A stretch of 64,000 nucleotides of DNA from Lampris incognitus (Eukaryota; Chordata; Actinopteri; Lampriformes; Lampridae): contig NC_079217.1 of NCBI RefSeq assembly GCF_029633865.1, positions 52,700,479 through 52,764,478 of the forward strand. Reading direction: 5' to 3'. A model generated the notes under the pieces. That model worked only from the letters and a program-made list of their open reading frames with translations. It was not told where the DNA came from and ran no database searches. Shown one piece after another: positions 37,641-61,936 of this stretch; position 1 is the stretch's first letter; each line of letters starts with the position of its first letter. The translations under genes and the position numbers were made by a program.

Positions 37641-40600
37641 CACACACATGCACACATGCACTGTGCATATGTGTGTGAATTATGAGGTGCCATTTAGGCC
37701 ATATATCAAGAAAGCTTGCACATACATTACTTTTTCCTCACACATGCACAGAAAAAGCTTGCACATACACTATTTTTACCTTGAACATGCACATAAAAAG
37801 CTCACATGCATACCACTTTTACTTTGCACATACACTACTTTTCCTCACACGTTAAAATAAAAAGCTCGCGCATGCACTACTTTTGCCTCGCACACACACA
37901 ACCTTCTTCATTCAAGTCACATTAAAAGCTCGTGAGAGAAAGTGTACGAGCAAGCTTTTTCTGTGCATGTGCAAGGTAAAAGTAGTGCATGCATGAACTT
38001 TTTTTATGCTATGTGTGAGAAAAAGTGGTGTATGTGCAAGGGAAAAGTGGCATGTGTGTGAGCTTTTTCTGTGCATGTTCAAGGTAAAAAGAGTGTGTGC
38101 AAGATTTTTATGTGTATGTGTGAGGGGAAAAGCAGTGTGTGTGCAAGCTTTCTTGATATATGGCCTAAACGGCACCTCATATCATCTCCATTTCCACTGC
38201 ATCGCCACACAATGCAGCCTATTAAAATTAAAACTAGGCCTGCATATAAAATTACGACCAGCTGTTGAACGCCAGTGTCCTGTCTCGCCTTGAGGCAGCG
38301 CCACCGCTGCTGTTCCACCAGCCACCTGTCTTCCCAGCGCAGGACACGAGACAGGGGGACTCGACGCCTCGTCCACCGCTTTCACGTCTTGTTACGAGCC
38401 AGTGTTGTTATTACGCCCTTCACCCGGGTGTGCCACTCTTTCTATTTGGCTCACCAATCACCTTTCCTCTGTATTGTTATAAAAGATTGTGTGAACTGAC
38501 ATTGATACGTGTTTGCAAGCAGAACGTGTATTTGCATGTTTCATTGTGCCCCAGTCTGAGTTTGTCTGCATATCTGTGTGTACGCATGTATGTGCATACG
38601 TGGCTGCGTGTGTATGAATCTGTGCGTCTGTTTGTCCATAAAAATGCGTGTGTGCGCGCGTGCACGCGTGTTCCTATAGGTCATAGACCCGTTCGAGTCC
38701 AGTGATCCGAGTCGGTGGCCGGACCAGACTGTTAGACAGCAGCTGATGCAGGAGTGCAGAGAGAGCTCTGCTGGTCCCTTCTTCATCGTGAGTACATCAG
38801 TGTAGCCGAGGGTTTGTAGATGTCGCCTGTACTGTATGAAACTATAAAATAACAAATGCGGAGGCTCCACTTTCACACGAGGGCCACTTTATTTTGGATT
38901 CTTCCCCCAACAGTAAACGCCACCGCCACCACGCTACATACAGCACTTCCGCTCTCTCTTCAGCCTTCAAAATAAGAGCTCAAGGCATATGTTGTGGCGA
39001 CAGCTTATAACAGGCACTTAAAATCACTAACAGGCTAAGTCCAGAAAAATAGGTTACATAAGTAATGTAGGCTGGAGTCATGATCATAATGAACTGGTCA
39101 GGAATCAGGAACAACTTACTGTCCCGTTTCCCCCAGCCCACAGCAGTGCCACACAAAAGACAAAAACACACATCCCAAATTTCCCGAAAACGACACCACC
39201 AAAACCATACAAAAACAGAGAGAACAAAGCAAACAAAAAAACAAAAAACACAAACAGATGACAACACAGTCCACTCGGTGCAACTCAGTCCAAAATGTCC
39301 ACTGGTCTAAGGGAACGAACGCCAGCCAGCGTGACTGTGGGAACTGCCGCTCTGCGTGGGCTAGCAGTTAGCTTAGCCTGCCCCGCTTCCGCGTCCTGTC
39401 AGACCGCCCTCGGTGTTTCCTCGTAGGGCGCAACTCCGGGCAGGGCCGTGGTCCCTGGGCCCACAGGATGGAGCAGCAGATCCAGCGCCAGCTCTCCCAG
39501 CCAGACACCCTCCACACACCTTCCCGCACTCCACACGGCGACACCAAAAGCACCCCAGTCAGCGCCAAGCGAGCCCGCCGCCAGACCGCCAGCAGCCAGC
39601 CCCGTTTCCGCGTCCCGTCAGCCCACCCTCGTGTTGCAAACTGAGCCTTGCCCCTTTAAGGAGGAGGGGGTGGGGCTTTGTGGGTAATCTGTGGGGGCGA
39701 CGTAGTCGCAGCCGTGTGTGTAAATTCTGTTTTTAGCCGCAGCCACCGAGATACAGATAGCAAGGTTGCCACCGTTACCAAGTGATGCTGGTGTAACCGG
39801 TTATTTTCTTGCCCGGTGCGGGATCCGATACGGGGTGTATTGCACCACAAGGCGACATCACTAACCGCTCGGCTAAAGGGTCAGACCCGTTAGCTAGGGG
39901 CTAACGGGTCTTATTAGTAGTTTACAGTCGTCACCCTCCCCGGAAGCGCGCCCTCGCGCTTTGTTATTCCCGCGCTCCGAAGAGACTTCTGAGGATCTGC
40001 ACACTTCCGGATCCCACCGCTGCCACCAATGTAGCCGAGGGTTTGTAGATGTCGCCTATACTGTATGAAACTATAAAATAACAAATACGGAGGTTCCACT
40101 TTCACACGAGGACCACGTTATTTGGATTCTTCCCCCAACAGAACGCCACAGCAACAACACTGCGTACAGCACTTCCGCTCTCTCTTCAGCCTTCAAAATA
40201 AGAGCTCAAGGCATATGCTGTGGCAACAGCTTATAACAGGAACTCAAAATCACTAACAGGCAAGTCCAGAAAAATAGGTTACAATAGTTATGCATCAGAG
40301 GGAGGCTGTGTGTTAAAGTGACTGCAGCGCCCCGATCTCCCCCGCAGAGCTGGTCCGGACTCTTGGTGACGTTTGTTACGAGCCAGGCTAAGCTAAACGG
40401 GCGAGCGACCCACCAGAGGCTTCCAGCTACGGTTCGGGGCCGCGAAGCTGGAGCGGTAACACTCGGTTACCTCCTCGTTCGCAGCTCCGGGCAGGACCGT
40501 GGTCCCTGGGCCCACAGGACGCAGCAGACCAGGCTCTCCCAGCCGATCCGGAGCCAGCTCTCCCAGCCATCAAACGAAGACAAAACAAGCGGAAACGCAG

Positions 40601-43600
40601 ACGCGGACAAAGACGCTGCACGGACGGCACTGCGTGAAACGTGAATTCGCGCCGCCATCTTCCCACACCGGAAGCGGAAGCTCGACCTTCCCAGCAGTGA
40701 CAATAGCTGCTATTATAGCTACGATAGTGTTACTGCTGACTAATGGGGGGGGGGTATGTATTGACGCTTCTGAAGATTTCTAGGTTGCCTAAAAAAGAAG
40801 GTGGCTGATCTGAGCCCGTGTCACTCCAACAGCTTATCATGGCACGCTCCTCCGTTCAACCGGGAGTATTAAGACAAAGTAAAATCAACTAAAAGCAAAA
40901 AAAAAAGGAGAATTCATGAAAAGAAATGCGCGGTGGGACTATCTGCTACAATTCAGTTATCAGCACAAGCATCGCCTCCTCCATCCACTTTCTATTTGAT
41001 GTACGCACACCTTATCAAGGTTCATCCTTGTAGAACCTGATAATGTAATAAATTCCCAATAATGTAATAACCCAGATAATGTAATAAAAATCTGCTCTTG
41101 AGTCCATTGAAAATGCAATAAAACCTGATAATGTAATAACTTCCTGATAATATAATAAAGTGCAGCTCCAGTGATACAGTGGTTGTGAAAAATGGATAAA
41201 CAGGTCAAAAGTTAATAAACATTCATACATGTCCAACTTTGACCTGTTGGTGGCGCTGGAGCTCTGGAGCTAGAGTTGCCAACACAGTATCACCACTTGA
41301 ACCCATTAATAGGTGGTCTGCTGTTAAATTATTACAATATTGGGGAATTATGACATTATCAGGACCTGCAAAATGAAGGCTAACCTGATCATGTAATAAC
41401 CTCCTGTTAATGCAATACTTTATTACATTATCGGTAAAAAGTTTATTACATTATCGGGAAATGCACTTTATTACATTATCAGGAAGTTATTACATTGTCA
41501 GGTTTTATTGCATTTTCAATGGCCTCAAGTGCATTTTTTATTACATTATCAGGGTTGTTACATTATCGGGGATTTATTACATTATCAGGTTCTACAATCC
41601 TTTATTTTTCCGTTTTGCACGCATCTTTGCCATGTGAACAAGGGCAGGATGAAAAACAAAAGCCAGAATAGCTGAGAAGGCGTCACTGTGCTGCAGGGCA
41701 ACACAAGCTGCACACAGGACTATACTTCAGGAGCTACGTCATCATTGATATTGTAGCGAATTCGGGGGACAACGCAACCACAGGAACTGCCGCGGCCGGG
41801 AAGCGAACCCGTATCGCCCGCACCGCAGGAGCCGCCGCTAACCGCTAGACTAAAGCGTCAGACCCACCAGCCAGCGGCCAGCGTGTCTACTTATCTATGC
41901 ACGTTACAATATTGATGAGTTAAACAAGCCTTCATATGTCCCACATGAGGGACGCTGAGAAAAGTGAGTCTGAGGAATTGTCTGATCTTTGTGGAAATGG
42001 GGACGCATTTCTACATCAACTAGAAAAATGTCCCATCCCTCATAAATAATGATTCCTCCTGCATTGCATTATACGGAAAGGAATTATTACAACGTTGGCC
42101 TGAAAACGTTGTTATTTCTGCTACTGTTATTGTCATTACATCTCTGGCTCATTTAGGAGGAGCATTTATTTCATTGGCACATGTTATTCCATCATCCACC
42201 AGTTGCTGCACACACCTTGTCACGCAATAATTGTTATGTGATGCAATGATGTTTTAAAAATATTAAAAGAAAATACAAATTATTGAGCAGAACTTGTCAT
42301 AACGTATTGTTACATCTGGTATTTTATTAGAATGACAAGTATTATTACAGTTTTAACTTATTCAGAGGACACATTTGTCACATTTTGAAAAACGGTCACG
42401 GTGTGTAGCAGAGACTACACGAACCCCCTGTGCCCCCTCCTACCGGTACCGCGGGTCTCCAACCAAGCCGGACAATGCTCTGTAAGCTGGAAGGTTTGGG
42501 TGCCAGGGGGGTCTTGGCCAGGTCATCCCCTAAAAGGCCAGTCGTGGATTCAAATCCCCAAAACCGAACACTGTGGTTCATCGGTCGCTGACCCCCAGAC
42601 GTTCCTGTAAACCTGGATTCAAGCCCCCGTGCTGTGTGAGGTCTCCTTGAACAAGATGTTGTTGTGACGAACATGGAAGTTCAAAGTTACTCTCTGGGCC
42701 TCTGCCTTGCTGCCCTTTCTGCCCCCGAGTGTGGCCTCGTCAGCACACCGCAGCGAGGGAGTCGCCCACAGACCCTCGCTGACCGGGTCCTGATGAGCAG
42801 CTCGCCTCTTACACACTCCAGCAAACACGCCGCCATGAACATCACAACGCAAGGCTCCTGACTGGGCCTACCCAAGTCAAAGCTTCCTTTGTTCTTACCA
42901 CTTTGCAGCGAATTCAGGGTGCAGCCGGGATGCGAATCCGGGTCTCCCGCACCACGGGCGACTACATTAACCAGTCGACTAAAGGGTCCGACCCATAGCC
43001 AAGGTCCAGCGAGTCTAGTTACCCGTGGTCGTTACAACTTGTTCGCCCGCGTCAGTCAGGCCTTCTCGATAACGTGACCTCTCAACACGGGGCGGACGCC
43101 TGCCGCCCGTCTGACCGCTTGCCTCTGACTGCGTGGCCGAGTGACTTTTGGCATGTTCATCTCAGCGACGCTGCACCTGACCCTGTGTTACGTCTAAAAC
43201 GAGGTGAACGTAGGGTACATTTTGTTTAACGCATCATATTATCATTCCATTTCAGAAGGGGGACTCTATAATGCAAGCCACACTTTTTGCCAGGACATAT
43301 TATGCTACAGTCGCCCATCTAGCCCATGCATGCAGCATGCCTGGTCACAGTTCAGGAGTCTCATGGCCTGCAGGCAGAAGCTTTCTTGGACCAGCAGGTT
43401 CCGAGATAGCTTCTGCCTCCGAGCTATGCGACTCTTAAACTGATCACTCAGTCACACACTGGCCTTATACACACTTGGGCCGTTCTTTATGGTTACTGTT
43501 ACCGACTGCACAATCCGCCGTTTGCACCAGTTCACCGTTTACAACACCATTGCATATGTCACCGTACCAACAAAGTCCATCCTGTCTGCACTGACTGTTT

Positions 43601-45598: not shown

Positions 45599-45631
<33 letters not shown>

Positions 45632-48211
45632 ATATGAGAAACAAAAGGGAAGTAAGTCTGACGCATGTTTTTTTTTGTGCAAATATTTAGTTTTCACATA
45701 TTTTTGATGTACATTCTTGTGGCACCCGGGTAGCGTAGCGGTCTATTCCGTTGCCTAGCAACACGGGGATCGCCGGTTCGAATCCCCGTGTTACCTCCGG
45801 CTTGGTCGGGCGTCCCTACAGACACAACTGGCCGTGTCTGCGGGTGGGAGGCCGGATGTGGGTATGTGTCCTGGTCGCCTACCTATGGGGGTGGGGGGGA
45901 TAGCTAGCGTGAGCCTCCCACGCGCTACATCTCCCTGGTGAAACTCCCCACTGTCAGGTGAAAAGAAGCGGCTGGCGACTCCACATGTATGGGAGGAGGC
46001 ATGTGGTAGTCTGCAGCCCTCCCCGGGTCGGTAGAGGGGTGGAGCAGCCACCGGGACGGCTCGGAAGAGGGGGTTAATTGGACAGTACAACTGGGGAGAA
46101 AAGGGGGAGGGGGGGAAATCAAAAAAAAAGAAAAAAAGAATAAGAATATTTAGGACTATGGCCACAGTTTACAAGGTAGTGGTGTTTTGTTTTTGTTTGT
46201 TTTTTGTTTTTTAATTTTCCTTGGACTTAGACTTTTCTAGCCACCAAGGCAGCTTTCCCGCCGCAGGGGGAATCTGTGACCGAGTGGCTACAAAGTGGCT
46301 ACAAAGTGGCTACAAAGAGACCAGCGCTAATCATTTCCCCTGGCCTGTCCTCCATACGCAGAGTGACGAGCTCTTCATTTCCCGGCTGTGCGTCAACTTC
46401 CTGCCCGGCCTCGTCGCCTCCCACCAGCTCCTCGTCTACACCACCGCCACAGAGTGCGACCCTCGCCATGGTTACACGTCGGCGAGGAGGCGGGGCTACG
46501 CCGAATCCCTCTGCCAGCAGCTGTATTCCGACCTCCTGGGCTTGATTGACAGCTCCATCACCTCGGAGAGCTCACAGCCTTCATCCGCAAGTCAAACGCC
46601 CTGCTTGGGCGCTTCGTTGGCCAGGGAGCAGGCTGAGCAGGCAGAGCTGTGCAGCATCCTGTCCCGTCTTTACCATGTCGTTCAGCCAGAGGAGGAACAG
46701 GTTATTATTATCATTATTATGTCTTCTCTTTTAACCTTATATAGATGACTTGTGAGGGCACAAAAGATCTGATTTTTTTCCCCCTAGTGGTGCATATGTG
46801 ATGGATTTGTCATTGTTTTCTTTACAGGGAAGAAACCACGCTGAGTCTGATTTTTCGTCAGCTAGACAGAAATCTAAAGACCACAGATGAATGAAAAGCA
46901 GAAATGTTTTTCCTGTGTTAAAGCCACCTATGCAGACAGGGGAGTTTTGTAGAAGTTAAGGGCCCCTGGCTGGTACCGGTACTGTGAAATGCAGCGGATA
47001 CGAGCCCACCTTTTGCTCTTTTTGTAGAAATTCCAGTAGGCTCATTCCGAAGCTGGTCTTATGTTATTTCTTGACGTTTCTCCCGTGCGGCTTTCTTCTT
47101 AGAGACCTGCTTGTTACTGGTTGTAGGTGAGAGCTTACGTGGAGCAGGCGGAGAGCCGGTGTCCCATGGTGGTGGCTGGGGGACCGTGCACGGGGAAAAC
47201 GGTGCTGCTCGCACACTGTGCTCAACAGGTAGGCTGATTGTGACTAGCGAAACTGAAACCCCGGTATCGTACACGCTTCAGCTCCTCCGACGTAGACATG
47301 TCCATCTAACAGTGTCTCTCCTTTGTCTTTACACGCACACCTTAAAGCTGTCCAGTGCATCACCTCATCGCTGTAAATCTTACCAACAGCCGTTATTCCA
47401 ACACACCATTACACCTCTCATTTTCCTCTTCAAAACATATGTGCAAGATTTCAGAGGATGAATGTGGACCTTTGCAAGATGCAACGCTAATGCAAAATGG
47501 AGTCATTCTTCTGTGAAACACGACTGAGGAGGTCCAAAATCAACAAAAATCCCCAACTCCTACCAGCAGCTTTAAGTTCCTAGATCAAACTGCATAGCTC
47601 CAACAATCAACCAACCAAATTAACACCCACTGAACACCAAATGTAGGTAAAATGTTACTGTGATGGATGAGTTAATGGGAGTCATCTGTCAGCGGGCAAA
47701 ATGGCAGGTTTTGATGTGAGGATGTGGCCCTCACTGTCCCAAGTACACTGATTTGTGAACGAACGACTCAAAATAAAGTTATAAAAGCCTAACAAGTCTG
47801 TGACAGGCTGTTGTACAGAAAGGTGGCTTGCACAGTTGAGTCAGACCATCTCTCTTCACTGTCCTCTCATTGCCAAACAACAGTGGAAAACAAAAAGAAC
47901 TGAAACTTTACTGTCCACTTATAATATGTAGCAACGCATTAGGCTGTCAGAAAGGACTATGAAAGGTCGAGGCACTGCAGGCTACAAGAGCTAACAGCAA
48001 AGGTTTTAATTAAAAACTCTAGATCTGATCAACTGTCTCTAGTATATAACTTTGTACTCGTTGAACTCAATGTAAACATGAAACTGCATGGGAAGAATAT
48101 TTGTAATGAAACAAGACATGCAAAGTTTAATGTCTGGCCGGTTATATTTTCTTCTTCACTAGCCCTTGGCAGGTGAACCCAATGGTTCATTTTGAACTCT
48201 GCCAACAGTAC

Positions 48212-48243
<32 letters not shown>

Positions 48244-51200
48244 TCATTGAAATGGGACCACTGTGTGTTATCTTTCCTTCTCCACAGATAAAGTCGTGGC
48301 TTGCTGACAGTGATCCCGTGGTGATCCCTTATTTTTTCAACCTGTCCATCAACCCCACCTTAAAGCACCTGCTTTCCAGTCTGTGTTATCAAATAGCTCA
48401 TGGCTATAGCGAAAGCTCTGATCCAAGCCCCAAGCCTGACTCAAAGCCCTTTCTTCACCCCAAGCTCCAATCTAGCCATACCTCTACTTTCAGTGGTCAC
48501 CCCTGTGAGCCTCACTTTTACCTTGGCTCTGCACCTCCCCTGGATCCTCATCATGAACTTGGTACTGAAGGGCATCATCCACAGGTTAATCCTTGCCTTA
48601 CTACTGTACGTAACCCTGATCCCGGAGACCTCTGTCCTAACCCCGACGCAAAACTCAGACCTGCTGACCATAAACCCTCTATCACAGACCACGATTTTAA
48701 ATCTCACCTCACTTTCACTCAGCTTAAAGAGCGTCTGTCCTCCCTCCTCTTCCATTTTCCATCTACCAAACGTCCCGTAGTATTAATGCTGGATGGCATA
48801 GACCAGACTGACGAAAACCATGCATGCCCAATCATCCAATGTCTCCCCTCCCCCCTCCCTCCCAGTGTCAAACTCATCCTTGCAGTCTCTACAAACCAAG
48901 TCCACATCCTACAAGCCATTAAACTACATTACCCACAATGCAACACGCCCCCCTATATGGCTGGGGGGAAAGTGGGTGTGGAGAAAAAGGTGGGCGAGCG
49001 GTTGGCATCAGACCAGGCGGAGAGGGCAGATTGTGTGTATGTGGAACTAAAGGCTACGGACAGGAAAACGCGTGTGAGGATGGTAGCGTCTCTGCTGAAC
49101 AGTGCTGGGAGGAGGGTCACATCTGGACAACAGGCAATACTGAACCAGGCTCTGACATCGTGTTCTCTGATGCTCTACGCTCGGCTCCTGCACATACACG
49201 CCCTGCTCTGGAGTTCAGGTATAAACACAGTAAAAGAAAAACAACATAATATATTGATACTTAATAAGGTTACCCCCATTACGCTATTTTATAGCATAGT
49301 TCTGTTTATCATTTAGTTGCAAAAGGTAACGGCCGAGCTATGTTTCTTTGACATTGAAACAGCTCATTGTCATACATGTATGATTTGCTTTGGTACTGTC
49401 CAGTCTATTCTGTTGCCTACCAACACGGGAATCGCTGGTTCGAATCCCCGTGTTGCCTCCGGCTTAGTCGGGCGCCCCTACAGACACAATTGGCCGTGTC
49501 TGCGGGTGGGAAGCCGGATGTGGGTATGTGTCCTGGTCGCCGCACTAGCACCTCCTCTGGTCGTTCGGGGCGCCTGTTCACGGGGGAGGGGGAACTGGGG
49601 GGAATAGCATGATCCTCCCACGCGCTACACCCCCCTAGGGAAACTCCTCACTGTCAGGTGAAAAGAAGCGGTTGGTGACTCCACATGTATGTGGTAGTCT
49701 GCAGCCCTCCCCGGATCGGCAGAGGGGGTGGAGCAGCGACCGGGACGGCTTGGAGAGTGGGGGTAATTGGCCAGATACAATTGGGGAGAAATATTTTGAT
49801 TCAGATCATACAGATGATCCCATGAAAACACTAGAAAATTCCCACCACACCTCTTTTCTGTTTCCTTCCTCTCACATCAGATTCAGAGGTAACTGAATCT
49901 TTGCTCCCTGATGGTGTCCATTCATCCATTTCTGCTCTGCTGGATCACTTGGAAGAGAAACACAGCTCCTCTCTGGTGTGTCGCTCCTTATCTTACATCA
50001 CCCTCTCCAGGACCGGGCTCACAGAGGCCGAGCTCACAGACCTCCTGTCCAGTGATGACAAGGTGCTGGTTGAATGTACTGAGCAAGGTGAAGCCCCCCT
50101 ACTCAAAACGAGGGTTCTGCAAGTGGATGTTGAAAGACTTCTGCTAGATTTGAGGCAGTTTCTGGTCAGGAGGAAGGTTGCAGGGACACAGGTCCTGTTC
50201 TGGATAAGCAGGCATTTTGGGCTTGTGGTGGGTAAGAGGTATTTAGGCACTCAAAAGGTGAGGAAGGAGATTCATTCATTATTGGCTGACTATTTCAGTG
50301 GGCAGCGGGGGTACGGAAGAGTTAAATCACTCGACACCACCAACGAATCAGGGCTCAACAACACTACTACAACTGTCTCTGCCACCGACCAGCCCTTTGT
50401 CTTTAAACCTCTCTCTTCATCTCCCTCTTCCAAGGGGATAGGTCTAGTAAATTTAAGGAAGATACTAGAACTGCCCCATCACTTGAGAAAGAGTGAGAGG
50501 TGGGAGGAGTTGGAGCGTGAGGTGATGATGTCACTTGGTTTTCACCAGGCTATGGTTCGGGCAGATCTCTTGGGTGATCTGGTAACTATGCTGGAGGGAG
50601 AGAGTGGTTTGCCACAGGCGTCCTTACCCAGGGAAGGCATGCTCTTGGCAAGCATATTGAAATCCTCTGCATGCTTACTCCAGAGCTTGCCCCTGGAGCT
50701 GTCAATGGTGATGGAGACTAGGCTTCTCCCTTACCTGGGAGTCTACCCTGAACTGGGGGGCTATGCTAGAGATATTTGGCAGGAGAGGAGGAAAAGAGGC
50801 TGTGGGGTAGGGGTGGCGCTTCACCCAGCTCCCACTGATGTTCCCTCCTTTCACAGTTCACTAAGCACAGCCAGAGCCGGGGAGAGTGTCCTCGTCGAAG
50901 CAGCTGTGACAGAGTGTGGTACTGTAGTTGGGGTTATGGATGATGGCTCTGCATGGATATGGAAAGTCCCATGGAGCGAGGGAGTGGAACTGTCATTAAG
51001 GGGTGAACAGAGCAAACTAAAGTTTGTTGGAGTCAAAAGTAGCAGTCGATTTATCCTGCTTCCTACACATTGCTACAAGCTTCTCCTATGGGACGCGGAA
51101 GGCCCAGAGATGCTTCTGGTCTTAGAGGAACCACTTAGAACAGAACTGGGGCTAAATGTTACTGAGGGCTTTGTGGTGAGTCAGGGAAAGTTATGCATAT

Positions 51201-53068
51201 GGTGGAAAGGGAAGAACTCGGTGAGTGTGTTTGATATCTCCAACAACGAGTCCCTGACTCATTTCCAGTGTCCAAGTTCTGTGACCTGTCTGGTTTGGTC
51301 CTCGGATGCCTGTTACATATTCTGCGGCCAGGAAAAAGGCAAGGTGTCCATATTTGACATGAACACTAACAACTTCATCGGTGTCTGTTCAAACCCAAAT
51401 CAGAATGCTATTCTGTCAGTTATTGTCTGTGAGGAAAAGTGGGAAATGGCATGTCTTGACACCACAGGGACTATTACACTTTGGAACATAGAGGCCAAAA
51501 TACAACCTGTTCTTTTAAAGGAGTGTTTTGGTGGGAGCAATACCACTAAGATCTTCAATACAGATTACTCAGAAGAACTGTGCACCTTATTGGTATGTGA
51601 AGCCCACCAGGTCACATTATGGGATACATGTGAATGGGTACTATGGGGCCAGTTTTTGGCACCGCAAGGGCGGGCTTTCATTCATGCTGTGCTTGCCGAG
51701 GAAGGCCACCTCTTTCTGGCTTTGTTAGAATCCTGTCCCCTAGTCTTTGTGTGGCGAATCAGCACTGGGGAGTGTGTTCTTTCCCTAGACACAGGCGCCA
51801 ACACACTACTACTTACACTTATCAAAGCAGCGTCAAATCTGATATCTGTGGCTCAAAATGGATGTCTCACAATGTGGGACTCCAAGCTGTTATATGCAGC
51901 AGGTTTGGCCTCCAAAATGGGGTCTGGGGTGAAGGATGTAGTAGTTGAACTGATGGACAAGCATTTTTACACGACTGATGGTTCAGAGACAGTGTGGGGG
52001 TGGAACTTAGAAACAGGGATTTCATGTTCCAACTTCCTGCACGACTGTCCCGTTGAAAAACTTTGCCTCTCTCCTGATAAAAAACATCTTCTGACGCTGT
52101 CAGGAGGGGATATTTATCTTTGGCAGACGGAAACAGGGCAGAACACCCAGCGTATTAGTGGTAGCAGAGCCACAGACATCTTGATAACCCTAAATGGTCA
52201 TTTTGGGGTAAGTCTTTCTGAAAGGGCGCTCTCACGGGTTTGGAAGCTTGCAAATGGAGTTATAGTGTGTAACATACATCTTTACCTAACTAATGCCCAG
52301 GTGTCACCTGAGAGCACTTACCTTATAGGCTGTTATCAGGGAGACCTGTTAGCTGTTGGCTTGTGGTCAGGTTATGTCAGCAAGCGCTTCTCTTGCACTG
52401 AGTGCTCTGAGCACATTCTGGCATTCCACACACTTCCAGAACAACCAGAGTTTGTAATGGTGATGGATGCCTCTGGGACAATATTCACGTGGAAAGTGGC
52501 AGAGGAGACAGTGTGCAGGCAATTTCAGCTTCCCTCTTGTTTCCAGTACCAGCTGCAAATCCTCCAAATGTCCTCAAATGGGAACTTTGTGCTCCTCTCT
52601 ACGGATGATGAAGTCATAACAATCCTGGACCTATTTCGGGCCAGGTTGTGTTTGGTCAAAGTTGAGGGTGCTGTCTTTAAAGCCGGCTTAGACAAATGTG
52701 GATGCTATGCTGCCTACATATCCCATCCCCCTGCTCAGGGGAACTGCTGTCTCTGCAACTTGCATGGCAAATGTGTCCTCACAGTGGTGCGACTTGCAGA
52801 TGGGTTAATAGTAGGAAGGTTGCGTCTGTGTAAGACGCCTTTGACTCTGGTTATGCACGATCAGCCGTGTGTTTTCGTAGGATTCAAGGATGGATCTGTG
52901 GGAGTATATTCCATTTTAGACGTCACGATGAATGATGGAGAGTTCATTAAGAGCAGGGAAAATCTCATCAGTCAGCAGCAGCAATGCCCATGTGACAAAA
53001 CACTGGTCAGATGGTTACCTTTAACAGTCCCTAATATTACATGGCCTGACACTCTTGACATAATTTAG
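36329..53068 (+). CDS. nwd2-like: NACHT and WD repeat domain-containing protein 2-like
   Basis: A complete STAND-type P-loop NTPase gene. Ten exons join in one frame: 36329-36401, 36908-36996, 38680-38787, 43830-44027, 44669-44807, 44998-45152, 46362-46700, 47127-47228, 48288-49218, 49881-53068, giving 5322 nt and 1773 residues, close to human NWD2 (about 1740). Order: N-terminal NWD module (1-155), helical region (157-367), NACHT with Walker A GGPCTGKT (385-392) and Walker B LMLDGIDQ (about 567-574), winged-helix-like region (700-900), WD-repeat half (about 1035-1725). Similarity to remembered human NWD2 runs the whole length but seems only moderate, so I call it NWD2-like. Such proteins are thought to oligomerise on nucleotide binding with the WD half sensing a ligand; the ligand is unknown. 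An in-frame TAA upstream fixes the first ATG. Confidence 0.9.
36522..36558. repeat. (AT)n microsatellite
   Basis: About 18 AT units in nwd2-like intron 1. Confidence 0.93.
36640..36900. repeat. GT/CG-rich minisatellite, Z-DNA-prone
   Basis: Degenerate tandem copies of a unit like gttctcacgtgtgtgtatgt, including a (CG)n core tcgcgcgcgcgcgcat near 36702-36717. Alternating purine-pyrimidine throughout; it runs directly into the acceptor of nwd2-like exon 2. Confidence 0.85.
36908..38787 (+). CDS. nwd2-like: nwd2-like exons 2 and 3 (N-terminal module)
   Basis: Exon 36908-36996 encodes AVERRALRETVFPRLREHC and 38680-38787 encodes QQLMQECRESSAGPFFI, matching the start of the NWD/TEP1-type N-terminal module (AERQALRENVYPKLREFC and TSAGPCF in NWD2). 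Exon 2 follows a GT-rich tract ending tgtgtag; exon 3 has acceptor ttcctatag. The intron between them carries the 497-bp fold-back element. The intron after exon 3 is 5 kb of nested repeats. Confidence 0.88.
37562..37628. repeat. (CCATGT)n followed by (GT)n
   Basis: Six hexanucleotide units of tgtcca type passing into about 15 GT units and a short (GA) run. Confidence 0.9.
37683..38179. mobile_element. 497-bp fold-back element with internal tandem repeats
   Basis: The left end TGAGGTGCCATTTAGGCCAT returns inverted at the right end (ATGGCCTAAACGGCACCTCA), and inverted similarity covers almost the whole element. Each arm is built of degenerate units of about 45 bp (aagcttgcacatacactact). It is flanked by TA on both sides (37681-37682, 38180-38181), the Tc1/mariner target. 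No coding capacity. Confidence 0.8.
38801..39058. repeat. LTR-like direct repeat, left copy
   Basis: About 258 bp starting TGTAGCCGAGGGTTTGTAGA and ending AATAGGTTACA, with tataaaataac inside. Repeated at 40030-40283 with roughly 90% identity. It starts 13 bp after the end of nwd2-like exon 3. Confidence 0.8.
39792..39926 (-). mobile_element. TG...CA mini-element with tRNA-like core, type B, copy 2
   Basis: 135 bp, TGTAACCGGTT at one end and TTTACA at the other. The tRNA-like core on the - strand has A-box TAGCCGAGCGG and B-box-like GTATCGGATCC. Nearly identical in length and sequence to 61315-61449. Flanks do not match (CTGG and GTCG). It lies between the two LTR-like repeats. Confidence 0.8.
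40030..40283. repeat. LTR-like direct repeat, right copy
   Basis: Second copy of 38801-39058 with the same TG...CA ends. A further similar block follows each copy (39425-39480 and 40485-40560, ctccgggcagg...ctgggcccacagga), so the repeated unit may be longer than the LTR-like part. No primer-binding site or coding sequence seen between them; flanks TCAG and ATAG are not a clean duplication. Confidence 0.75.
41029..41596. mobile_element. 568-bp TIR element built of GATAATGTAATAA motifs
   Basis: Terminal inverted repeats of about 136 bp (41029-41164 and 41462-41596, about 90% identical by eye) start TGTAGAACCTGATAATG. It is flanked by a perfect 5-bp duplication ATCCT (41024-41028 and 41597-41601). 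Each arm has about six copies of GATAATGTAATAA at irregular spacing. No ORF, so non-autonomous; superfamily not assigned. Confidence 0.9.
41752..41908 (-). mobile_element. TG...CA mini-element with tRNA-like core, type A, copy 2
   Basis: 157 bp. + strand ends TGTAGCG...CGTTACA, flanked by a perfect 4-bp duplication ATAT (41748-41751, 41909-41912). The core on the - strand has A-box-like TAGTCTAGCGG and B-box-like GGTTCGCTTCC. Confidence 0.85.
42904..43036 (-). mobile_element. TG...CA mini-element with tRNA-like core, type A, copy 3
   Basis: 133 bp. + strand ends TGCAGCG...CGTTACA, flanked by a perfect 4-bp duplication ACTT (42900-42903, 43037-43040). The core on the - strand has TAGTCGACTGG and GGATTCGCATCC. 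Confidence 0.85.
43204..43443 (+). mobile_element. Possible LINE ORF2 C-terminal fragment
   Basis: The + strand reads KLSWTSRFRDSFCLRAMRLL and stops, resembling the F..SF.P.A...LN ending of CR1/L2-type ORF2 proteins. The remainder is not recognisable. Weak evidence. Confidence 0.35.
43830..44027 (+). CDS. nwd2-like: nwd2-like exon 4
   Basis: Sixty-six codons, phase 0, from ALVGHRYG to THAHRPQ. The acceptor ctgcag at 43824-43829 was chosen over earlier open sequence because it joins FFI to ALVGHRYG with no gap relative to NWD2 (CFVGLLGEKYG). It also contains YVRDENTVPPSYRL, matching YCRDENSVPAAYYL of NWD2. The donor GTGATC is weak. Confidence 0.87.
44669..46700 (+). CDS. nwd2-like: nwd2-like exons 5-7 (helical region before NACHT)
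   Basis: Exons 44669-44807, 44998-45152 and 46362-46700. They encode EELRRMFQTAEGLCEQEK, then FALEDQSAEDIRRCLVYVHK, then LPGLVASHQLLVYTTATECD and a Gln/Ala-rich helix ending HVVQPEEEQ. Each aligns with NWD2 between the N-terminal module and the P-loop. The exon 5 acceptor is a tandem cagcag (44669-44671), so one Gln may be optional. The exon 7 donor GTTATT is weak. A SINE (45721-46139) sits in the intron before exon 7. Confidence 0.85.
45721..46139 (+). mobile_element. tRNA-derived SINE (family 1), near full length
   Basis: The best-preserved head of the family: A-box-like tagcgtagcgg and perfect B box ggttcgaatcc (45775-45785), then the family body with a short internal deletion near 45880, and an A-rich tail. 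Confidence 0.92.
47127..47228 (+). CDS. nwd2-like: nwd2-like exon 8 with the Walker A P-loop
   Basis: Thirty-four codons from VRAYVEQAES to LLAHCAQQ with the Walker A motif GGPCTGKT, the same as in NWD2. This is the nucleotide-phosphate binding loop of the NACHT domain, with Lys and Thr intact, so ATPase or nucleotide-switch function is plausible. Acceptor ggttgtag, donor GTAGGC. Confidence 0.9.
47229..48287 (+). other. nwd2-like intron 8 without recognised elements
   Basis: About 1.06 kb with no ORF or repeat that I can name, except a (GAT)10 run at 48213-48242 shortly before the acceptor. Confidence 0.6.
48288..49218 (+). CDS. nwd2-like: nwd2-like exon 9 (rest of NACHT)
   Basis: A 931-nt exon (310 codons plus one base), acceptor tctccacag, donor GTATAA. 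It begins with the strand after the P-loop (DPVVIPYFFNLS), contains Walker B LMLDGIDQ and ends near RVTSGQQAILNQALTSCSL, matching KVTSGQQIYVNNALSKCTL of NWD2. Residues about 444-539 (48414-48701) form a Pro/His/Asp/Ser-rich, apparently disordered insert with degenerate repeats such as NPDPGDLCPNPDAKL, not present in the remembered NWD2. Confidence 0.88.
49403..49792 (+). mobile_element. tRNA-derived SINE (family 1), 5'-truncated
   Basis: Begins within the tRNA-like head (gtctattctgttgcc), keeps the B box ggttcgaatcc and the full body, and ends ttggggagaaatatt. It lies in nwd2-like intron 9. Confidence 0.9.
49881..53068 (+). CDS. nwd2-like: nwd2-like exon 10 (winged-helix-like region and WD repeats)
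   Basis: A single 3188-nt terminal exon with 1061 codons and TAG. The first part (SLSYITLSRTGLTEAELTDL) matches the SRALGYITMAKMGLSEMELEDV region of NWD2. From about residue 1035 it carries at least a dozen WD-repeat strand ends: SAWIWKV, LLLWDAE, SVFDIS, SIFDMN, ITLWNIE, VTLWDT, LVFVWRIS, LTMWDSK, IYLWQTE, SRVWKLA, IFTWKV, ITILDLF, VGVYSIL. Two seven-bladed propellers would fit. No stop or frameshift interrupts it. The acceptor is tcacatcag at 49872-49880. Confidence 0.93.
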
Positions 53069-53145
53069 GGTGAGATTTTTTGCATGTATACAAAATGTAT
53101 ACTCTATTTGAATGGACCTAAGGTAGAGATCGAGAGAGATGTAGT

Positions 53146-53225: not shown

Positions 53226-53268
53226 CTGGCACCCATTCAAGAACAAATTACTTTACTAGTACATAATC

Positions 53269-53729: not shown

Positions 53730-53737
53730 ACATAATC

Positions 53738-55013: not shown

Positions 55014-55059
55014 CTTTCATAAAATGTAAATTATTTTTAAACTAAATCCCCATTTACTG

Positions 55060-56241
55060 CTTTTAAACCTAGATAGGTACAGGCCTATCGCGCTAGCCAG
55101 CATGCTGCCAAATGTCCTGGAAAAGTACTGCTGGATAGAGCGCATGAGTTTATCCCCTCCACGGATAACCAGTTTGGTTTTAAAGCTAAAAATGGCCACT
55201 GACTTATGTATATGTATGCCTTAAAGGAAATTATTAACAAATACAGAGGCCAAAACTCATCGGTTCTTATGTGTTTTATTGATGCTTCTAAAGCTTTTGA
55301 TTGTGTTAATCATAGCAAGTTGATTGTTATACTGAGTCAAAGAGGGGTGCCTAAATACTGTGAGAATCCTGGCTTATTGGTATGCCCACCAGACTATGCA
55401 AGTGAAATGGGGTAATAGCGTTTCAGACCCATTTGGGGTTAGTAATGGTGTCAGACAAGGGGGGATTCTGTCTCCATTTCCCTGCAATCTATATATTGAT
55501 GATTTGTCCAAGCTGTTGAAAGCCTGTAACACTGGGTGCATGATGGGTAACACCTTGGTGAACCATATTATGTATGCAGATGACCTTGTCATTCTTGGTC
55601 CCTGTAGCGCTGGTCTCCAGCAGCTCTTTGATATACGTTGTGTGTATGGTGTGCAGCATGATATCAAATACAATGCTAGTAAGAGTGTTGTCATGATCTG
55701 CAGAACCAAAGAGGTCAATCATCTAAAATTTCCTGATTTTAAATGGTCTGATAATAATCTTGGGGTACGTAATAAGGTGAAACATCTTGGACATTAAATT
55801 ACTGAACAAATGACAGACGATGATGATATTTATAGGCAATGCCGCATGATGTATGCACAAGCAAACACTCTCACGCAAGTTTGGTATGTGTTCAGTTAGT
55901 GTGAAGATGTCTGTTCAGAGCATATTGTACACCACTCTATACTGCCCCCTGTGGTCAAACTACAAAAAGCAAGCTTACAGAGGCTTCGAGTAGCTTATAA
56001 TGATGCCATGAGAATACTGCTAAAAAGACCTAGATGGTGTAGTGCAAGTGAAATGTTTGTGGCTGCAGGAGTCAGCACCTCTCAGGCTCTTCTAAGAAAT
56101 CTGATGTATAAATGTATTTGCCGGCTCAATGACTCTGATAATGTAATCATCAAGTGGTTAACGAATATGAGATTCAGTGCCACACGCTACCAGTCCCTGC
56201 AGTGGGACCACTGGTATAGCTGCCTTCTTATAAGACACTGA
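55060..56241 (+). mobile_element. Non-LTR retrotransposon RT domain remnant
   Basis: Decayed ORF2: YRPIALASM, then SSVLMCFIDASKAFDCVNHS, NGVRQGGILSPF, the catalytic YADDLVILG (about 55572-55600) and a C-terminal part (AYNDAMRILLKRPRWCSASE). Frameshifts and stops occur near 55200, 55390 and 55795. Both ends are truncated. The RT type differs from the L1-like copy at 57.7-60.0 kb; clade not certain. Confidence 0.78.
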
Positions 56242-57186: not shown

Positions 57187-57275
57187 TCTATCCATCCATC
57201 CATCCGCTTATCCTGCTCTCAGGGTCCCGGTGGGGATGCTGGAGCCTATCCCAGCAGTCACTGGGAGGCAGTCGC
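57187..57275 (-). mobile_element. SINE family 2, 3' fragment, reverse
   Basis: Tail (ccatccatccatccgctta) and adjacent domain (atcctgctctcagggtcccg, gctggagcctatcccagcag) of the family at 13069-13425. Confidence 0.8.
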
Positions 57276-57399
57276 CATGTTATAATGTAAGCTAGCGTTA
57301 TATGTTCTGACTGCTTTTCTGTTTGTGCTTCTGGAAATGGTAGATATATATTTTTCAATTTCTATAATTAACGCAGGAAAGAATGATTTATTATTTAAA

Positions 57400-57740
57400 A
57401 TTGTACTTTTATGGTTTTGAAATTTTGCAAAACAAAAACAAAAAACAAAAGATTTATTAAGTAAAACTCACTGTTGCTTTCACTATTTCTGTCATGGAAA
57501 CTAAACAATACATATTCCCATTTAAGGGAAAATTACAGACTTAAGACATATAAAAGCAGTTAGTTCCTTCCAAAGTTTTCTGGGAAAGGTGCAGTCCCAA
57601 AATAAATGTGTGATTGTCTCAATTTGAGTTTTGCACAACGAACAAGTGGGGTTCGTTGTTTTTACAAATCTTCTCAGGTACTGACTCGTTGGGTAAAACC
57701 TGTGTAATAATTTAAAGGAAAAATCTTTTATTTTCTTATT
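57400..57740 (-). mobile_element. L1-type ORF2 C-terminal fragment, reverse
   Basis: The - strand reads KDFSFKLLHRFYPTSQYLRR, TNPTCSLCKTQIETITHLFW and RKLWKELTAFI, the zinc-finger-like C-terminus of fish L1 ORF2. It is oriented opposite to the L1 remnant that follows. Confidence 0.7.
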
Positions 57741-60013
57741 AACTTATTTATCATGTTAACTGTGGACACCTTCTGTCTTGGGAACCCTGACCCATTTGCT
57801 TACTCCCTTACACTCTATATTGACAGTGTCTTGTGCAAAGACCTGAACAAGATCTCTGCTTTTGTCTCTGCTTTTTATGAAAAACCGTATCATTCCAACT
57901 TCAATGCTTAAGGCTAGTGAGGAGTTTCTTAAACAAATTCAAAATAGGATTCCTAGAATAGACGATAACTTTAAATCAATATGTGAGGCTGACCTATTAT
58001 TGATGAAATCAAGATTGCACTATTCTCAATGAAGAAAGGCAAATCCCCAAAAATTGATGGTCTGTGTGCTGAATTCTACACTCATTTTTGGGAAATCATT
58101 AGTGGACCACTACTCGACATGTATAAGGAATGTATCAGCCAGGGGAAGATGGTCCCTACAATGAGACAAGGCATAATGACCCTCATACCCAAGCCCGAGA
58201 AAGAGCCTCTATCGATAGAAAATTGGGGCCCAATTACCTTTTTATTTATACAGTACAAGATTTTGGCCTTGGTCTATTAGCATAGACCAAGGCCAAGCAT
58301 AGACTCTATGCTAATAGATTAAGAAAAGGATTGGGTCAAATAATAGCAGAAACTCAAACTGGCTTTACGAAAAACCAACATATAAGCAGGAATATTAGAT
58401 AAGTGTTTGACCTGTTGGATTATGCAGATGAAGTAAACTCAGAGGCGCTCATTTTGTTTAGACTTTTACAAGGCATTTGACACAATTGAACATGCAACTA
58501 TTTGGCTTTGGGGATAATCTTGTGCGTATAATTGATATGTTATATAGAAATATAAATAGCTCTTTATTATTTAATTTTGATACTTCTAAAAGATTTCCAA
58601 TCAACAGAGGGGTACGTTAAGGTTGCCCAAGTTCCACTATTTATTTTGGTTACAGAACTATTATCTTTGAATATCACCAGTGACAGAAGTTTACAAGGAA
58701 TCTCTATTTTTGATGAAGAAATTACGATTTCTCAGTTGGCAGATGACACAACCTTATTTCTAAAAGACAAAAGTCAATAACCCATTATTAACTTAATCGA
58801 TCAATTCTCAAATGCCTCAGGTTTAAAGCTAAATTTACCAAAGTGTGAAATTTTGTCCATTCACGAATGTTCTGATTCTGTACCTATGAAACCTATGGCT
58901 TCAGATGGATCTCTCTATTATTAGGAGGGTGCTCCTCTCAAAGGCAGAAGGTCTGCCCCGCTTGGTCTACCCATCTTTGTTGCTATTTAGTCAAGACTCT
59001 ACAGTTAAACAAATAAATAAGTCCTTCTTAGATTTTGTATGGAAAAAAACAATTCGAATAGACTTGAAAAAATCTGTACTTTCCAATTCTAGAGAGGTGG
59101 GTGGTCTTGAATTTGTGAACTTTAATGACACTGTAAATACCTTTAAAATAAACTGGCTGAAAATATGTCTTTCAAATCCCATATCAACTTGGTATTTCAT
59201 CCCAAACACATTTTTTTATAAAATTTGGGGCCTTTCATTCCTTCTAAAATGCAATTATCTACCAAATAGGTTACCTGCTCGTTTATCTAAATTCCATCAG
59301 CAAGCCCTTTTAGCATGGAAACTGGCATTCGTCCACAATTTTTCACCTCATAAATCACTTCTTTGGCACAACAGTGATATTATGAATAAATCATTGTTTT
59401 TTTCCAAAATGGCATCACAGACATATTCAATCACATTCTAAACCTCTTTGATGATTTTGGTAATGTTTTGTCCCATGAACAGTTTATGGTGGTTCGTGAC
59501 TTTCCAGGTCCATGTAGAGAGTTTAATTCCATAATACATGCACTTCCTCTTGGATTGACTCAATTACTTAAAAGTCATCTATGCGGCGGGGGGACTAAAA
59601 CTTGCTAACGTTAGATGGAATTGAACTCACTGACAAAAAATGTATCAATAAACAGAAGAATTTTCGAAAGAAGGAATAAAGTGATACCTAGAGGAACGTT
59701 CTACTGGAATTCTTGTGTTGAGGACATTTACTGGAGGAGGGCTTGGTTGTTACCATATAAATACTGTATTTCAAATAAGGTATAAGAGATTCATTTCAAG
59801 CTTCTGCACAGCATACACCCAGCTAATACTCTTATAGCAAAGTTCACATGTCTTGATGGCTGCTGCACTTTCTGTGGAAACGATGGGGAGACTCCTGTTC
59901 ATTTCTTTTTCAGTTGTTCAGTAACAAATACGTTTTGGAAAGATCTGGGATCTCACATCTTCTTAAATACAAACATCACACATTCCTTTACCCTGAAAGA
60001 CATAGTTTGTTAT
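57741..60013 (+). mobile_element. L1-type LINE ORF2 remnant (RT to C-terminus)
   Basis: Frameshifted L1-like reverse transcriptase: KKGKSPKIDGLCAEFYTHFW, TLIPKPEKEPLSIENWGPIT, AETQTGFTKN, the catalytic motif QLADDTTLF (about 58732-58758), a thumb/connection part (LPRLVYPSLLLFSQDSTVKQ) and a cysteine-containing C-terminus near 59850-59990. Many stops and shifts. It is cut at 60013 by a type B mini-element. Confidence 0.78.
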
Positions 60014-60110
60014 TGTAACCGGTTATGTTCTTGCCCGGTGCGAGATTCGATACGGTGTGTACTGCACCACAAGGCGACGTCACTAACCGCTCGGCTAAAG
60101 GGTCAGAACC
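60014..60110 (-). mobile_element. TG...CA mini-element with tRNA-like core, type B, copy 3 (truncated)
   Basis: Starts TGTAACCGGTTATGTTCTTG as in the other type B copies and keeps the tRNA-like core (reversed CGTATCGAATC and TAGCCGAGCGG), but ends after gggtcagaacc without the second terminus. It interrupts the L1 remnant. Confidence 0.75.
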
Positions 60111-60870
60111 ATACTACCCAGAGGTCATACTACCCAGAGGTCACCTGAGAAGGAAAAAAGCATATGTACTGAAATTCGCCTCCATTCTGTGTGATATCCT
60201 GCAGAAACTCATAAGAGATGTATGCAAAGATTGTCTGACTTTATCCCAAATTAACGGGGTTTTGACCCAGAATGAGGGAGTAAATGCTGCCATCTGCTGG
60301 TTGAAAATGTGAACTTCAAGTGAGGGGACAAGCGCACAAATGCGCCACTGGTCAAATAACCTGTAAGGATGTTAGACATGGTCGTTATTCTATTTCGCCA
60401 AGTTGGAGGTCATTTTATTTGGTTGCAGCTCCCTTAACTACTCCAACATCACGGACAGGGTCATCGATCAGCCCATCTCCTTAAAAGAATTCTTTCTTCC
60501 ATGGTGAACCTCGCCATATTTCGGCAGCTGACACTGTGGCCGGGCAGAATGCCAGCCAGTCATGCCCTGAGTTGTCTGGGGGACTGGGGGCGAGCTGGAG
60601 GGAGAGAGAGAGAGAGAGTGTGTGTGTGTGTGTGTGGGGGGGGTATAATTGTGTTTCCATGAGTGTGTTTGTTTGTCTGCTATATACAGAAAGGGGGAGG
60701 AGAGAAACGGACATACAGAGAACAAAAGAGGTTGTTTCCCCTTCAAATACAAGGACAGACTGAGACAGTTTGACAGCCAAACACTTTTTGTTTAACCTCC
60801 TGTCACCTGGTAATTAGTGATGTTTGAAACAGCCACTGTTATCAGCGCCTTCTCCAGGGCCAGACCAAAA
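60111..60870. other. Unrecognised sequence between L1 remnant and hAT element
   Basis: Contains an open stretch to 60312 (ILCDILQKLIRDVCKDCL) that I cannot assign, and a GA/GT-rich run near 60600-60640. A short direct repeat catactacccagaggt occurs at about 60111. Confidence 0.4.
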
Positions 60871-61717
60871 CTAGCGCTGCACGATTCATCTAATGTCAGC
60901 CTGCGCAGTTATAGAACCGCAGAAGGCTGCGGTTCAATCAAATAACACAATGTCCGTGTGTGAACGTCTGTTTGTGTGCAGTCTGCATAACCACGCCCAT
61001 AATTAATTAAGAGACGACCGATCGGTCTCTGTTGAGGCAGCGAAGCGCGTGCAGTCTACGGTCACGTGACTATCCAGCGTGCTGCGTGCAGACCAGAAAG
61101 AATGGAAAAATGGATACCGATCACGACGAGCAGGTTGACGCGGATGAACCGCTGGCAAAACAAAACGCGACCTCTGATATATGGCGATGTTTTGGATTCC
61201 AGCTCAGCGACGCTGAGCAGAACGAGGTTTTGTGTAAAATATGCAAAATGAAAGTCGCTACATGTCGCGGCAACACGCCGAATTTGTATTCGTTTGTTTT
61301 GTCTTGGTTATAGGTGTAAACTACTAATAACACCTGTTAGTCCCTAGCTAACGGGTCTGACCCTTTAGCCGAGCGGTTAGTGATGTCGCCTTGTGGTGCA
61401 GTACACCTGGTATCGAATCCCGCACCGGGCAAGAAAATAACCGGTTACATAGGGATACATAATTCCCCTTATTGAGCTAGTAGGAACGTTTGATTACAGC
61501 TGCTGTTTTCTCGGTTCGTGTTTACAGTGATACACTTCCGCTGCGCGGGTTTTTGTTATGGTGACGGACTAAATAGTGCACGTTGTGTAGACGAAAGAGA
61601 AAGTTGTCACGACTCCTGATTGAGCTCCTCTACAGTTTATTATATCGCAAATCGCGATATTGTCCACAATAATCACAACATGACTTCTTTTTTTTTTCAC
61701 CAAATCGTGCAGCACTG
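60871..61717 (+). mobile_element. Internally deleted hAT transposon with BED-finger exon
   Basis: Inverted ends CTAGCGCTGCACGATT (60871-60886) and reversed CAGTGCTGCACGATTTGG (to 61717). From the ATG at 61110 the + strand encodes an acidic N-terminus and a BED-type zinc-finger start (SDIWRCFGFQLSDAEQNEVL, CKICKMKVATCRGNTPNLYS), as in ZBED/hAT transposases. The rest of the transposase is gone and a type B mini-element is inserted at 61315. Flanks do not show a clean 8-bp duplication. Confidence 0.75.
61315..61449 (+). mobile_element. TG...CA mini-element with tRNA-like core, type B, copy 1
   Basis: 135 bp from TGTAAACTACT to AACCGGTTACA with a perfect 4-bp duplication TAGG (61311-61314, 61450-61453). 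The A box TAGCCGAGCGG (61366-61376) fits the consensus TRGCNNAGYNGG except for length; B-box-like GTATCGAATCC is at 61410-61420, with 33 nt between, as in a tRNA. Confidence 0.88.
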
Positions 61718-61789
61718 AAAAGGTGCCCACTGGTGTTCAGTTGGTAACGTTGCTTTATTCTTTTGCATTTGGCTGCCATCACTATGTAT

Positions 61790-61932
61790 TGTAGCGGGCA
61801 GTCCGGGGGACCGTCGCCACAGCCGGGACGCGAACCCGTATTTTCTTCTCCGCAAGCGACAACGTTAACCAGTCGACTAAAGGGTCCGACCCGTTGGGGG
61901 GCCAACGTCTCTACTTATCCATGCACGTTACA
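61790..61932 (-). mobile_element. TG...CA mini-element with tRNA-like core, type A, copy 1
   Basis: 143 bp. + strand ends TGTAGCGGG...CACGTTACA, flanked by a perfect 4-bp duplication GTAT (61786-61789, 61933-61936). The core on the - strand has TAGTCGACTGG and GGTTCGCGTCC. It shares CGGGTC.GACCCTTTAG with the type B copies. Confidence 0.88.
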
Positions 61933-61936
61933 GTAT

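What the first reader, a model, noticed from the sequence alone, without database searches (positions are those of the whole stretch)
39792..61932. Family of 133-157 bp TG...CA elements with a tRNA-like core and 4-bp target duplications
Six copies (39792, 41752, 42904, 60014, 61315, 61790) fall into two related types sharing GACCCTTTAG and a tRNA-like core with A- and B-box-like sequences 33 nt or so apart. Unlike SINEs they have fixed TGTA...TACA termini (one TGCA) and no A-rich tail. Four of five complete copies have perfect 4-bp duplications (ATAT, ACTT, TAGG, GTAT). That is what Ty3-type integrases or Ginger-like transposases (TGTNR...YNACA, 4-bp duplications) leave. They may be Pol III-transcribed solo LTRs, comparable in idea to plant Cassandra (5S core in the LTR), or MITEs that captured a tRNA. 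I do not recognise them as a named family.
Basis: partly seen in the sequence, partly recalled or inferred. Interest (0 to 1): 0.78.

Follow-up and report, generated by a model that had tools for sequence, protein, structure and literature searches.

The report
tRNA-promoter solo LTRs in a fish
Six short scattered repeats in a spiny-rayed fish genome are best explained as leftover ends of tiny retrotransposons that borrowed a tRNA-gene promoter, a kind of element described in 2024 under the name Helenus; the find probably extends it to another branch of fishes but is not a new kind of system.

Summary
The window has six related elements (five complete, 133-157 bp; the one at 60014 is truncated) with TG...CA ends. 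Four of the five complete copies have perfect 4-bp target duplications (chance about 5.5e-9), and a tRNA-like core has A and B boxes 32-33 nt apart. Exact terminal inverted repeats are only 2-5 bp. There is no A-rich tail, unlike a SINE in the same window. The best explanation is solo LTRs of miniature LTR retrotransposons (TRIMs) whose LTR carries a tRNA-derived Pol III promoter, integrated by a Gypsy-type integrase. This kind is in print: Kojima 2024, Helenus (PMC10886601), in which animal families leave 4-bp duplications. The host looks like an acanthomorph teleost, outside the chordate groups in that paper's table (coelacanth, sturgeon/paddlefish, Ostariophysi), so this looks like a new member, in two subfamilies, in a new host lineage. 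Formal membership stays open: 0 of 6 copies keeps an internal region, so primer-binding site and polypurine tract could not be verified, and the host genome was unreachable. MITE, Ginger and SINE readings fit worse.

The parts
61315..61449 (+). Type A element, complete solo LTR-like copy, TGTAAAC...GGTTACA, 135 bp
61311..61314 (.). Target duplication TAGG, left (right copy 61450-61453)
61366..61376 (+). A-box-like sequence TAGCCGAGCGG (7 of 7 scored positions of TRGYNNARNNG)
61410..61420 (+). B-box-like sequence GTATCGAATCC (8 of 10 scored positions of GGTTCGANTCC)
39792..39926 (-). Type A element, complete, 94.8% identical to 61315; no target duplication
60014..60110 (-). Type A element, truncated at its 5' end, lying just after a stretch with a weak LINE zf-RVT match (E 7e-05, below the Pfam cut-off)
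41752..41908 (-). Type B element, complete, 157 bp, TGTAACG...CGCTACA; duplication ATAT at 41748-41751 and 41909-41912
42904..43036 (-). Type B element, complete, 133 bp, 3' end TGCA; duplication ACTT at 42900-42903 and 43037-43040
61790..61932 (-). Type B element, complete, 143 bp; duplication GTAT at 61786-61789 and 61933-61936
39884..39910 (-). Hairpin GACCCGTTAGC/GCTAACGGGTC just before the tRNA-like core (best-preserved copy); partly kept in the others
   Evidence: 86.5% of 52 cells paired, 20-42% when slid; 52 of 500 shuffles as good, so only suggestive

Best explanation
These are solo LTRs of a Helenus-type TRIM, a miniature non-autonomous LTR retrotransposon whose LTR carries a tRNA-derived RNA polymerase III promoter. 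Proposed cycle: TFIIIC and Pol III recognise the A and B boxes inside the 5' LTR and start an RNA close to the GACCC before the A box. A Gypsy-type partner supplies reverse transcriptase and integrase in trans. The linear DNA is inserted with TG...CA ends and a 4-bp duplication, and recombination between the two LTRs then leaves one LTR. Shown here: repeat family, two subfamilies, LTR-like ends, 4-bp duplications, an A/B-box pair in every copy. Inferred: transcription, reverse transcription, the Gypsy partner, and loss of the internal region.
For: Fixed TG...CA ends with 4-bp duplications in 4 of 5 complete copies. Exact terminal inverted repeats of only 2-5 bp, as in LTRs. Joint A+B-box score at tRNA-like spacing is reached by 0-12 of 1000 dinucleotide shuffles per copy, six copies. 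Between types (two A and three B complete copies), identity is highest at the acceptor/A-box block (110/132 = 0.83) and next at the B-box block (59/84 = 0.70), against 0.60 between the boxes and 0.33 at the 3' end. Kojima 2024 describes this anatomy, with 4-bp duplications in animals, Gypsy-like primer-binding sites in animal families, solo LTRs, and A-box TRGCY/YGG and B-box GGTTC signatures.
Against: No copy in the window has a partner LTR, and no flank shows a primer-binding site above background (0 of 6). The box signatures are imperfect: type A reads GGTATC or CGTATC instead of GGTTC; type B has TAGTC in place of TAGCY and a C instead of the conserved A in TTCGA, and two of three type B copies match 6 of 7 A-box positions. 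No copy contains a TTTT Pol III terminator (0 of 6). ARAGORN calls no tRNA in the window and the Rfam tRNA model none in 36000-64000 or in three copies tested alone. The tRNA isotype is unclear (His-like for type A; Glu, Asp and Arg best for the three type B copies), whereas Kojima's fish Helenus are aligned with tRNA-Val-CAC.
Confidence: 0.85

Rival explanations
1. Ordinary tRNA-derived SINEs moved by a LINE through target-primed reverse transcription.
For: tRNA-like core with A and B boxes.
Against: Fixed TG...CA ends, tRNA-like part in the middle and not at the 5' end, no A-rich tail, exactly 4-bp duplications. A repeat of about 400 bp in four main copies in the same window looks like a real tRNA-derived SINE: by eye its tRNA-like head comes first, two of four copies end in A/G-rich tails, and one of three copies tested shows a 15-bp duplication with 14 matches.
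Confidence: 0.03
2. MITEs of a Ginger-like or other cut-and-paste transposon that captured a tRNA-like sequence.
For: 4-bp duplications and TGTNR termini are shared by Gypsy LTRs and Ginger1 (PMC2836005 passages).
Against: Exact inverted repeats only 2-5 bp against about 40-270 bp for Ginger1. Targets ATAT, ACTT, TAGG and GTAT are not CCGG or CCGT, and none of the four duplicated sites reads RTATAY, the Ginger2 preference (sites read by eye from the flanks). I know of no transposon family with such short inverted repeats and 4-bp duplications that fits better (recall).
Confidence: 0.06
3. Solo LTRs of an ordinary Pol II-driven Gypsy element or TRIM in which the A- and B-box resemblance is decay or chance.
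For: Boxes are imperfect, no TTTT terminator, no tRNA call. Both complete type A copies have AATAA at two places.
Against: Box pair at tRNA spacing in six of six copies, rarely reached by shuffles. The A-box block is the most alike region between the two diverged types.
Confidence: 0.06

Closest known systems
Helenus (TRIMs with a tRNA-like sequence in the LTR; Kojima 2024, PMC10886601)
   Same: tRNA-like core with A and B boxes inside a short LTR, 4-bp duplications in animals, several families per genome; some fungal families are known only as fragments and solo LTRs.
   Different: No full-length copy seen here. Host looks like an acanthomorph teleost; the paper's Table 1 lists, among chordates, only coelacanth, Acipenseriformes, Cypriniformes, Siluriformes and Gonorynchiformes.
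Cassandra (plant TRIM with 5S rRNA promoter in the LTR; PMC7215508 passages)
   Same: Pol III promoter carried in the LTR of a non-coding miniature LTR element.
   Different: 5S-derived and in plants; here tRNA-like and in a fish. Cassandra keeps Pol III terminators (as summarised in PMC10886601); these copies have no TTTT run.
Ginger1 / Ginger2 DNA transposons (PMC2836005 passages)
   Same: TGTNR termini; 4-bp duplication in Ginger1.
   Different: Ginger1: about 40-270 bp inverted repeats and CCGG or CCGT targets; Ginger2: RTATAY targets; both encode a transposase. None of these features was seen in the six copies.
tRNA-derived SINE in the same window (about 400 bp; copies near 9963, 30538, 45726, 49403)
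   Same: tRNA-like sequence (by eye).
   Different: tRNA-like head at the 5' end, A/G-rich tail in two of four copies, a 15-bp duplication with 14 matches in one of three copies tested.

Membership tests
Helenus | tRNA-derived sequence with A and B boxes inside the LTR | tested here: met
   Six of six copies, shuffle tests; Kojima's signatures TRGCY/YGG and GGTTC are matched only in part.
Helenus | 4-bp target duplications (animal families) | tested here: met
   4 of 5 complete copies.
Helenus | LTR-type termini, TG...CA | tested here: met
   Five of five complete copies. The parts of the paper I read do not spell out termini; TG...CA for LTRs is general knowledge.
Helenus | Two LTRs flanking a short internal region with PBS and PPT, total 311-1263 bp | tested here: inconclusive
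   0 of 6 window copies have a partner LTR; 41752 and 42904 lie on one strand 996 bp apart but differ by about 26% and each has its own duplication. Best PBS-like flank has 9 of 12 matches, also reached by 8.5% of random places; purine runs upstream were listed but not tested.
Helenus | Core mostly predicted not to encode a functional tRNA | tested here: met
   ARAGORN 0 genes in the window; no Rfam tRNA match in 36000-64000 or in three copies tested alone. The two SINE copies in that stretch are not called either, so this is weak evidence.
Helenus | Sequence similarity to a named vertebrate Helenus family (for example LTR-11_DR) | not testable with these tools
Ginger1 | About 40-270 bp TIRs and CCGG or CCGT target duplications | tested here: not met
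   Exact inverted repeats 2-5 bp; targets ATAT, ACTT, TAGG, GTAT (definition).
Ginger2 | RTATAY target sites | tested here: not met
   0 of 4 duplicated sites reads RTATAY (flanks, read by eye; definition).
tRNA-derived SINE (SINE2) | 5' tRNA head, A-rich or simple 3' tail, variable 7-20 bp duplications (general knowledge) | tested here: not met
   Core is internal, no tail, 4-bp duplications; contrast with the in-window SINE.

The most novel reading that the evidence does not exclude
The LTR-length unit is itself the mobile element: a 133-157 bp Pol III-transcribed 'LTR-only' element that is copied and integrated by a Gypsy machinery without any internal region, a kind of SINE that uses an integrase. 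In the window 0 of 6 copies keeps an internal region, whereas counts in Kojima 2024 section 3.8 (copies over 90% length) imply, by my arithmetic (LTRs minus twice the internal portions taken as solo), about 11% solo loci for LTR-11_DR and 44% for Helenus-2C_CGi. But about 63% for LTR-1_PTrit and 84% for Ajax-1_LiLo follow from the same counts, so all-solo in a small, partly old sample is not surprising.
Probability: 0.06. Interest if true: 0.75.

Novelty: new member of a known kind. Interest (0 to 1): 0.33.

Why it matters
If confirmed in the host genome, Helenus-type elements would reach acanthomorph teleosts, a chordate lineage absent from the published table. Their two subfamilies, one with 5% divergence between two copies and one about 26% diverged, would suggest long residence and not one recent arrival. 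Such elements can also be mistaken for tRNA genes or SINEs in annotation. The missing Pol III terminator raises a concrete question about how the RNA of these elements ends, which young copies could answer.

Tried and rejected
Host genome search (genome search, own) was attempted ten times with the same request and never answered. Collection scans: a loose 15-base pattern hit 60 viral contigs that look like chance (the 30 best BLAST alignments to the elements are 16-26 bp); the 21-base core pattern had 0 hits in genome contigs and 0 in viral contigs, as expected for prokaryote and virus collections. Rfam: no tRNA match. PBS search in the flanks of the six copies against 19 recalled tRNAs found nothing above background. 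The hairpin before the core is suggestive only (86.5% of cells paired, slid controls 20-42%; two pairs with changes on both sides, but the version slid by -1 also has two, and 52 of 500 shuffles do as well; single-copy folds give z -3.77, -0.93, -0.75 and +0.82 for four of the five complete copies). A tRNA isotype assignment was attempted and is not stable. The retroelement-like stretch at 62563-64000 was checked as a possible autonomous partner: three reading frames gave no Pfam match, so no link is claimed. Literature: LTR-11_DR appears only in Kojima 2024; the search for Helenus with TRIM and retrotransposon from 2024 on returned only that paper; by the titles and abstract openings listed, the other searches showed nothing closer, and I did not open those further papers.

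A slip mended here: my script labelled the A-box maximum 8 and the joint maximum 18; the consensus used has 7 scored positions, so the true maxima are 7 and 17. Scores and shuffle counts are not affected.
Full report
WHAT IS THERE. They form two types. Type A: 39792-39926 (-), 61315-61449 (+) and a truncated copy at 60014 (-). Type B: 41752-41908, 42904-43036 and 61790-61932, all on the minus strand. In element orientation the five complete copies start TGTAA; the copies end in GGTTACA (three A), CGCTACA (two B) or CGCTGCA (42904). A profile built from all six finds the six at E 3.3e-27 or better, the opposite strand of a known copy at E 0.016, then only hits at E 0.11 or worse, and on the reversed window nothing better than E 0.083. 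The profile was built from the same copies, so this shows that no further clear copy exists in the window, not independent homology.

TARGET DUPLICATIONS. Four of five complete copies have perfect 4-bp duplications: ATAT, ACTT, TAGG, GTAT on the + strand. The fifth (39792) has none. The window's own background for a 4-mer match at that spacing is 0.58%, giving about 5.5e-9 for at least four of five. The truncated copy at 60014 was not counted.

ENDS. The exact inverted terminal match is 5 bp in type A and 2-4 bp in type B; with one or two mismatches it stretches to 7-11 bp. This is what LTRs have. It is far from Ginger1 (about 40-270 bp inverted repeats, CCGG or CCGT targets), and none of the four duplicated sites reads RTATAY, the Ginger2 preference (PMC2836005, passages only).

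THE tRNA-LIKE CORE. A and B boxes start 43 or 44 nt apart (32-33 nt between them) in all six copies. The joint box score is reached by 8, 11, 1, 0, 12 and 2 of 1000 dinucleotide shuffles (39792, 60014, 61315, 41752, 42904, 61790). A-box matches are 7, 7, 7, 7, 6 and 6 of 7 scored positions and B-box matches 7, 7, 8, 9, 8 and 9 of 10, in the same order. The best isotype differs between copies: His for the three type A copies; Glu, Asp and Arg for the three type B copies. I therefore make no isotype claim; Kojima's figure legend aligns fish Helenus with tRNA-Val-CAC, which was not the best match here. ARAGORN and Rfam call no tRNA, but Rfam calls none on the two SINE copies in the 36000-64000 stretch either. 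Between types A and B (two and three complete copies) the acceptor/A-box block is the most alike (110/132, 0.83), then the B-box block (59/84, 0.70), against 0.60 between the boxes, 0.65-0.66 before them and 0.33 at the 3' end. Deviations that count against an intact promoter: type A reads GGTATC or CGTATC where GGTTC is expected, type B has C in place of the usual A (TTCGC, three of three). No copy holds a run of four T (0 of 6), so a canonical Pol III terminator is missing. An RNA reading through the 3' LTR would still allow strand transfer, because its start lies inside the LTR (inference).

CONTRAST WITH A SINE IN THE SAME WINDOW. A repeat of about 400 bp with four main copies (9963, 30538, 45726, 49403) looks like a conventional tRNA-derived SINE: by eye its tRNA-like head comes first, two of four copies end in A/G-rich tails, and the copy at 30538 has a 15-bp duplication with 14 matches. 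Of the three copies tested for duplications the other two were not clear, and the fourth was not tested. This serves as an internal yardstick: the TG...CA elements do not look like that.

HOST. The 1067-residue NWD2-like reading frame at 49865-53065 matches fish NACHT and WD repeat protein 2. Best are Centroberyx gerrardi (68%), Polymixia lowei (66%) and Myripristis (63%) (120 of 220 hits listed, only the 7989 candidates sharing most words scored). A tree of 29 rows puts it in an unresolved fork with Polymixia and the gadiforms (support 89, drawn open); the nearest rows by path are Centroberyx and Polymixia; salmonids and Hypomesus fall in the same drawn half, but the root is for drawing only. 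One gene, quick method: the reasonable statement is an acanthomorph teleost, probably near the base.

WHAT IT IS. The anatomy matches Helenus, defined by Kojima 2024 as TRIMs with a tRNA-like sequence in the LTR. Animal families leave 4-bp duplications and show Gypsy-like primer-binding sites; solo LTRs with duplications are described for fungal families (PMC10886601; I read the outline, parts 1-4 of 6 of the text, the tables and legends section, and searched passages). Its Table 1 lists, in Chordata, only coelacanth, Acipenseriformes, Cypriniformes, Siluriformes and Gonorynchiformes. I found no later paper on Helenus (the library lacks most subscription journals and preprints). So the finding works like Helenus and very probably is Helenus. 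Formal membership lacks the PBS, PPT and paired LTRs, which no window copy shows (0 of 6) and which I could not look for in the host genome because the search machine did not complete.

HOW IT WORKS. Shown: dispersed copies, LTR-like ends, 4-bp duplications, a box pair present in both diverged types. Inferred from established knowledge of LTR elements and from Kojima 2024: Pol III transcription from the 5' LTR, reverse transcription primed by a host tRNA, integration by a Gypsy integrase, and LTR-LTR recombination to a solo LTR. Type A is young enough for 94.8% identity between two copies (7 substitutions listed). Type B is older (73.5-74.8% identity over the aligned 115-120 bp).

A POSSIBLE EXTRA. 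A hairpin just before the core (perfect 11-bp stem in 39792) pairs in 86.5% of 52 scored cells, against 20-42% when slid, with two pairs changed on both sides; but the version slid by -1 also has two such pairs, 52 of 500 shuffles do as well, and the stem was read off one of the sequences. I leave it as a lead.

VERDICT. Whether the sequences match a named family could not be tested.

Noticed in passing
window 9963-10366, 30538-30974, 45726-46134, 49403-49791 (fragment at 4465-4670): A repeat of about 400 bp that looks like a conventional tRNA-derived SINE; the copy at 30538 has a 15-bp duplication with 14 matches.
   Followed up: partly
window 41028-41597: Large inverted repeat (137-bp arms, 92.7%) built from repeated units like CCTGATAATGTAATAA; a palindromic MITE-like element.
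   Followed up: no
window 38795-39067 and 40024-40292: Direct repeat of about 270 bp, 91% identical, 1.23 kb apart, with the duplication-less type A copy 39792 between the two halves.
   Followed up: no
window 62563-64000, minus strand: Retroelement-like coding stretches (by eye; three reading frames) without any Pfam match, running off the window end.
   Followed up: partly
window 61100-61314: A reading frame that looks by eye like the N-terminal part of a BED-finger/hAT-type protein (recall, not searched) lies just before the type A copy at 61315.
   Followed up: no
window 55336-55794: Reverse transcriptase fragment (Pfam RVT_1, E 3.5e-12), a LINE remnant by inference.
   Followed up: no
window 49865-53065: NWD2-like gene (NACHT and WD repeat), used here to place the host among acanthomorph fishes.
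   Followed up: yes
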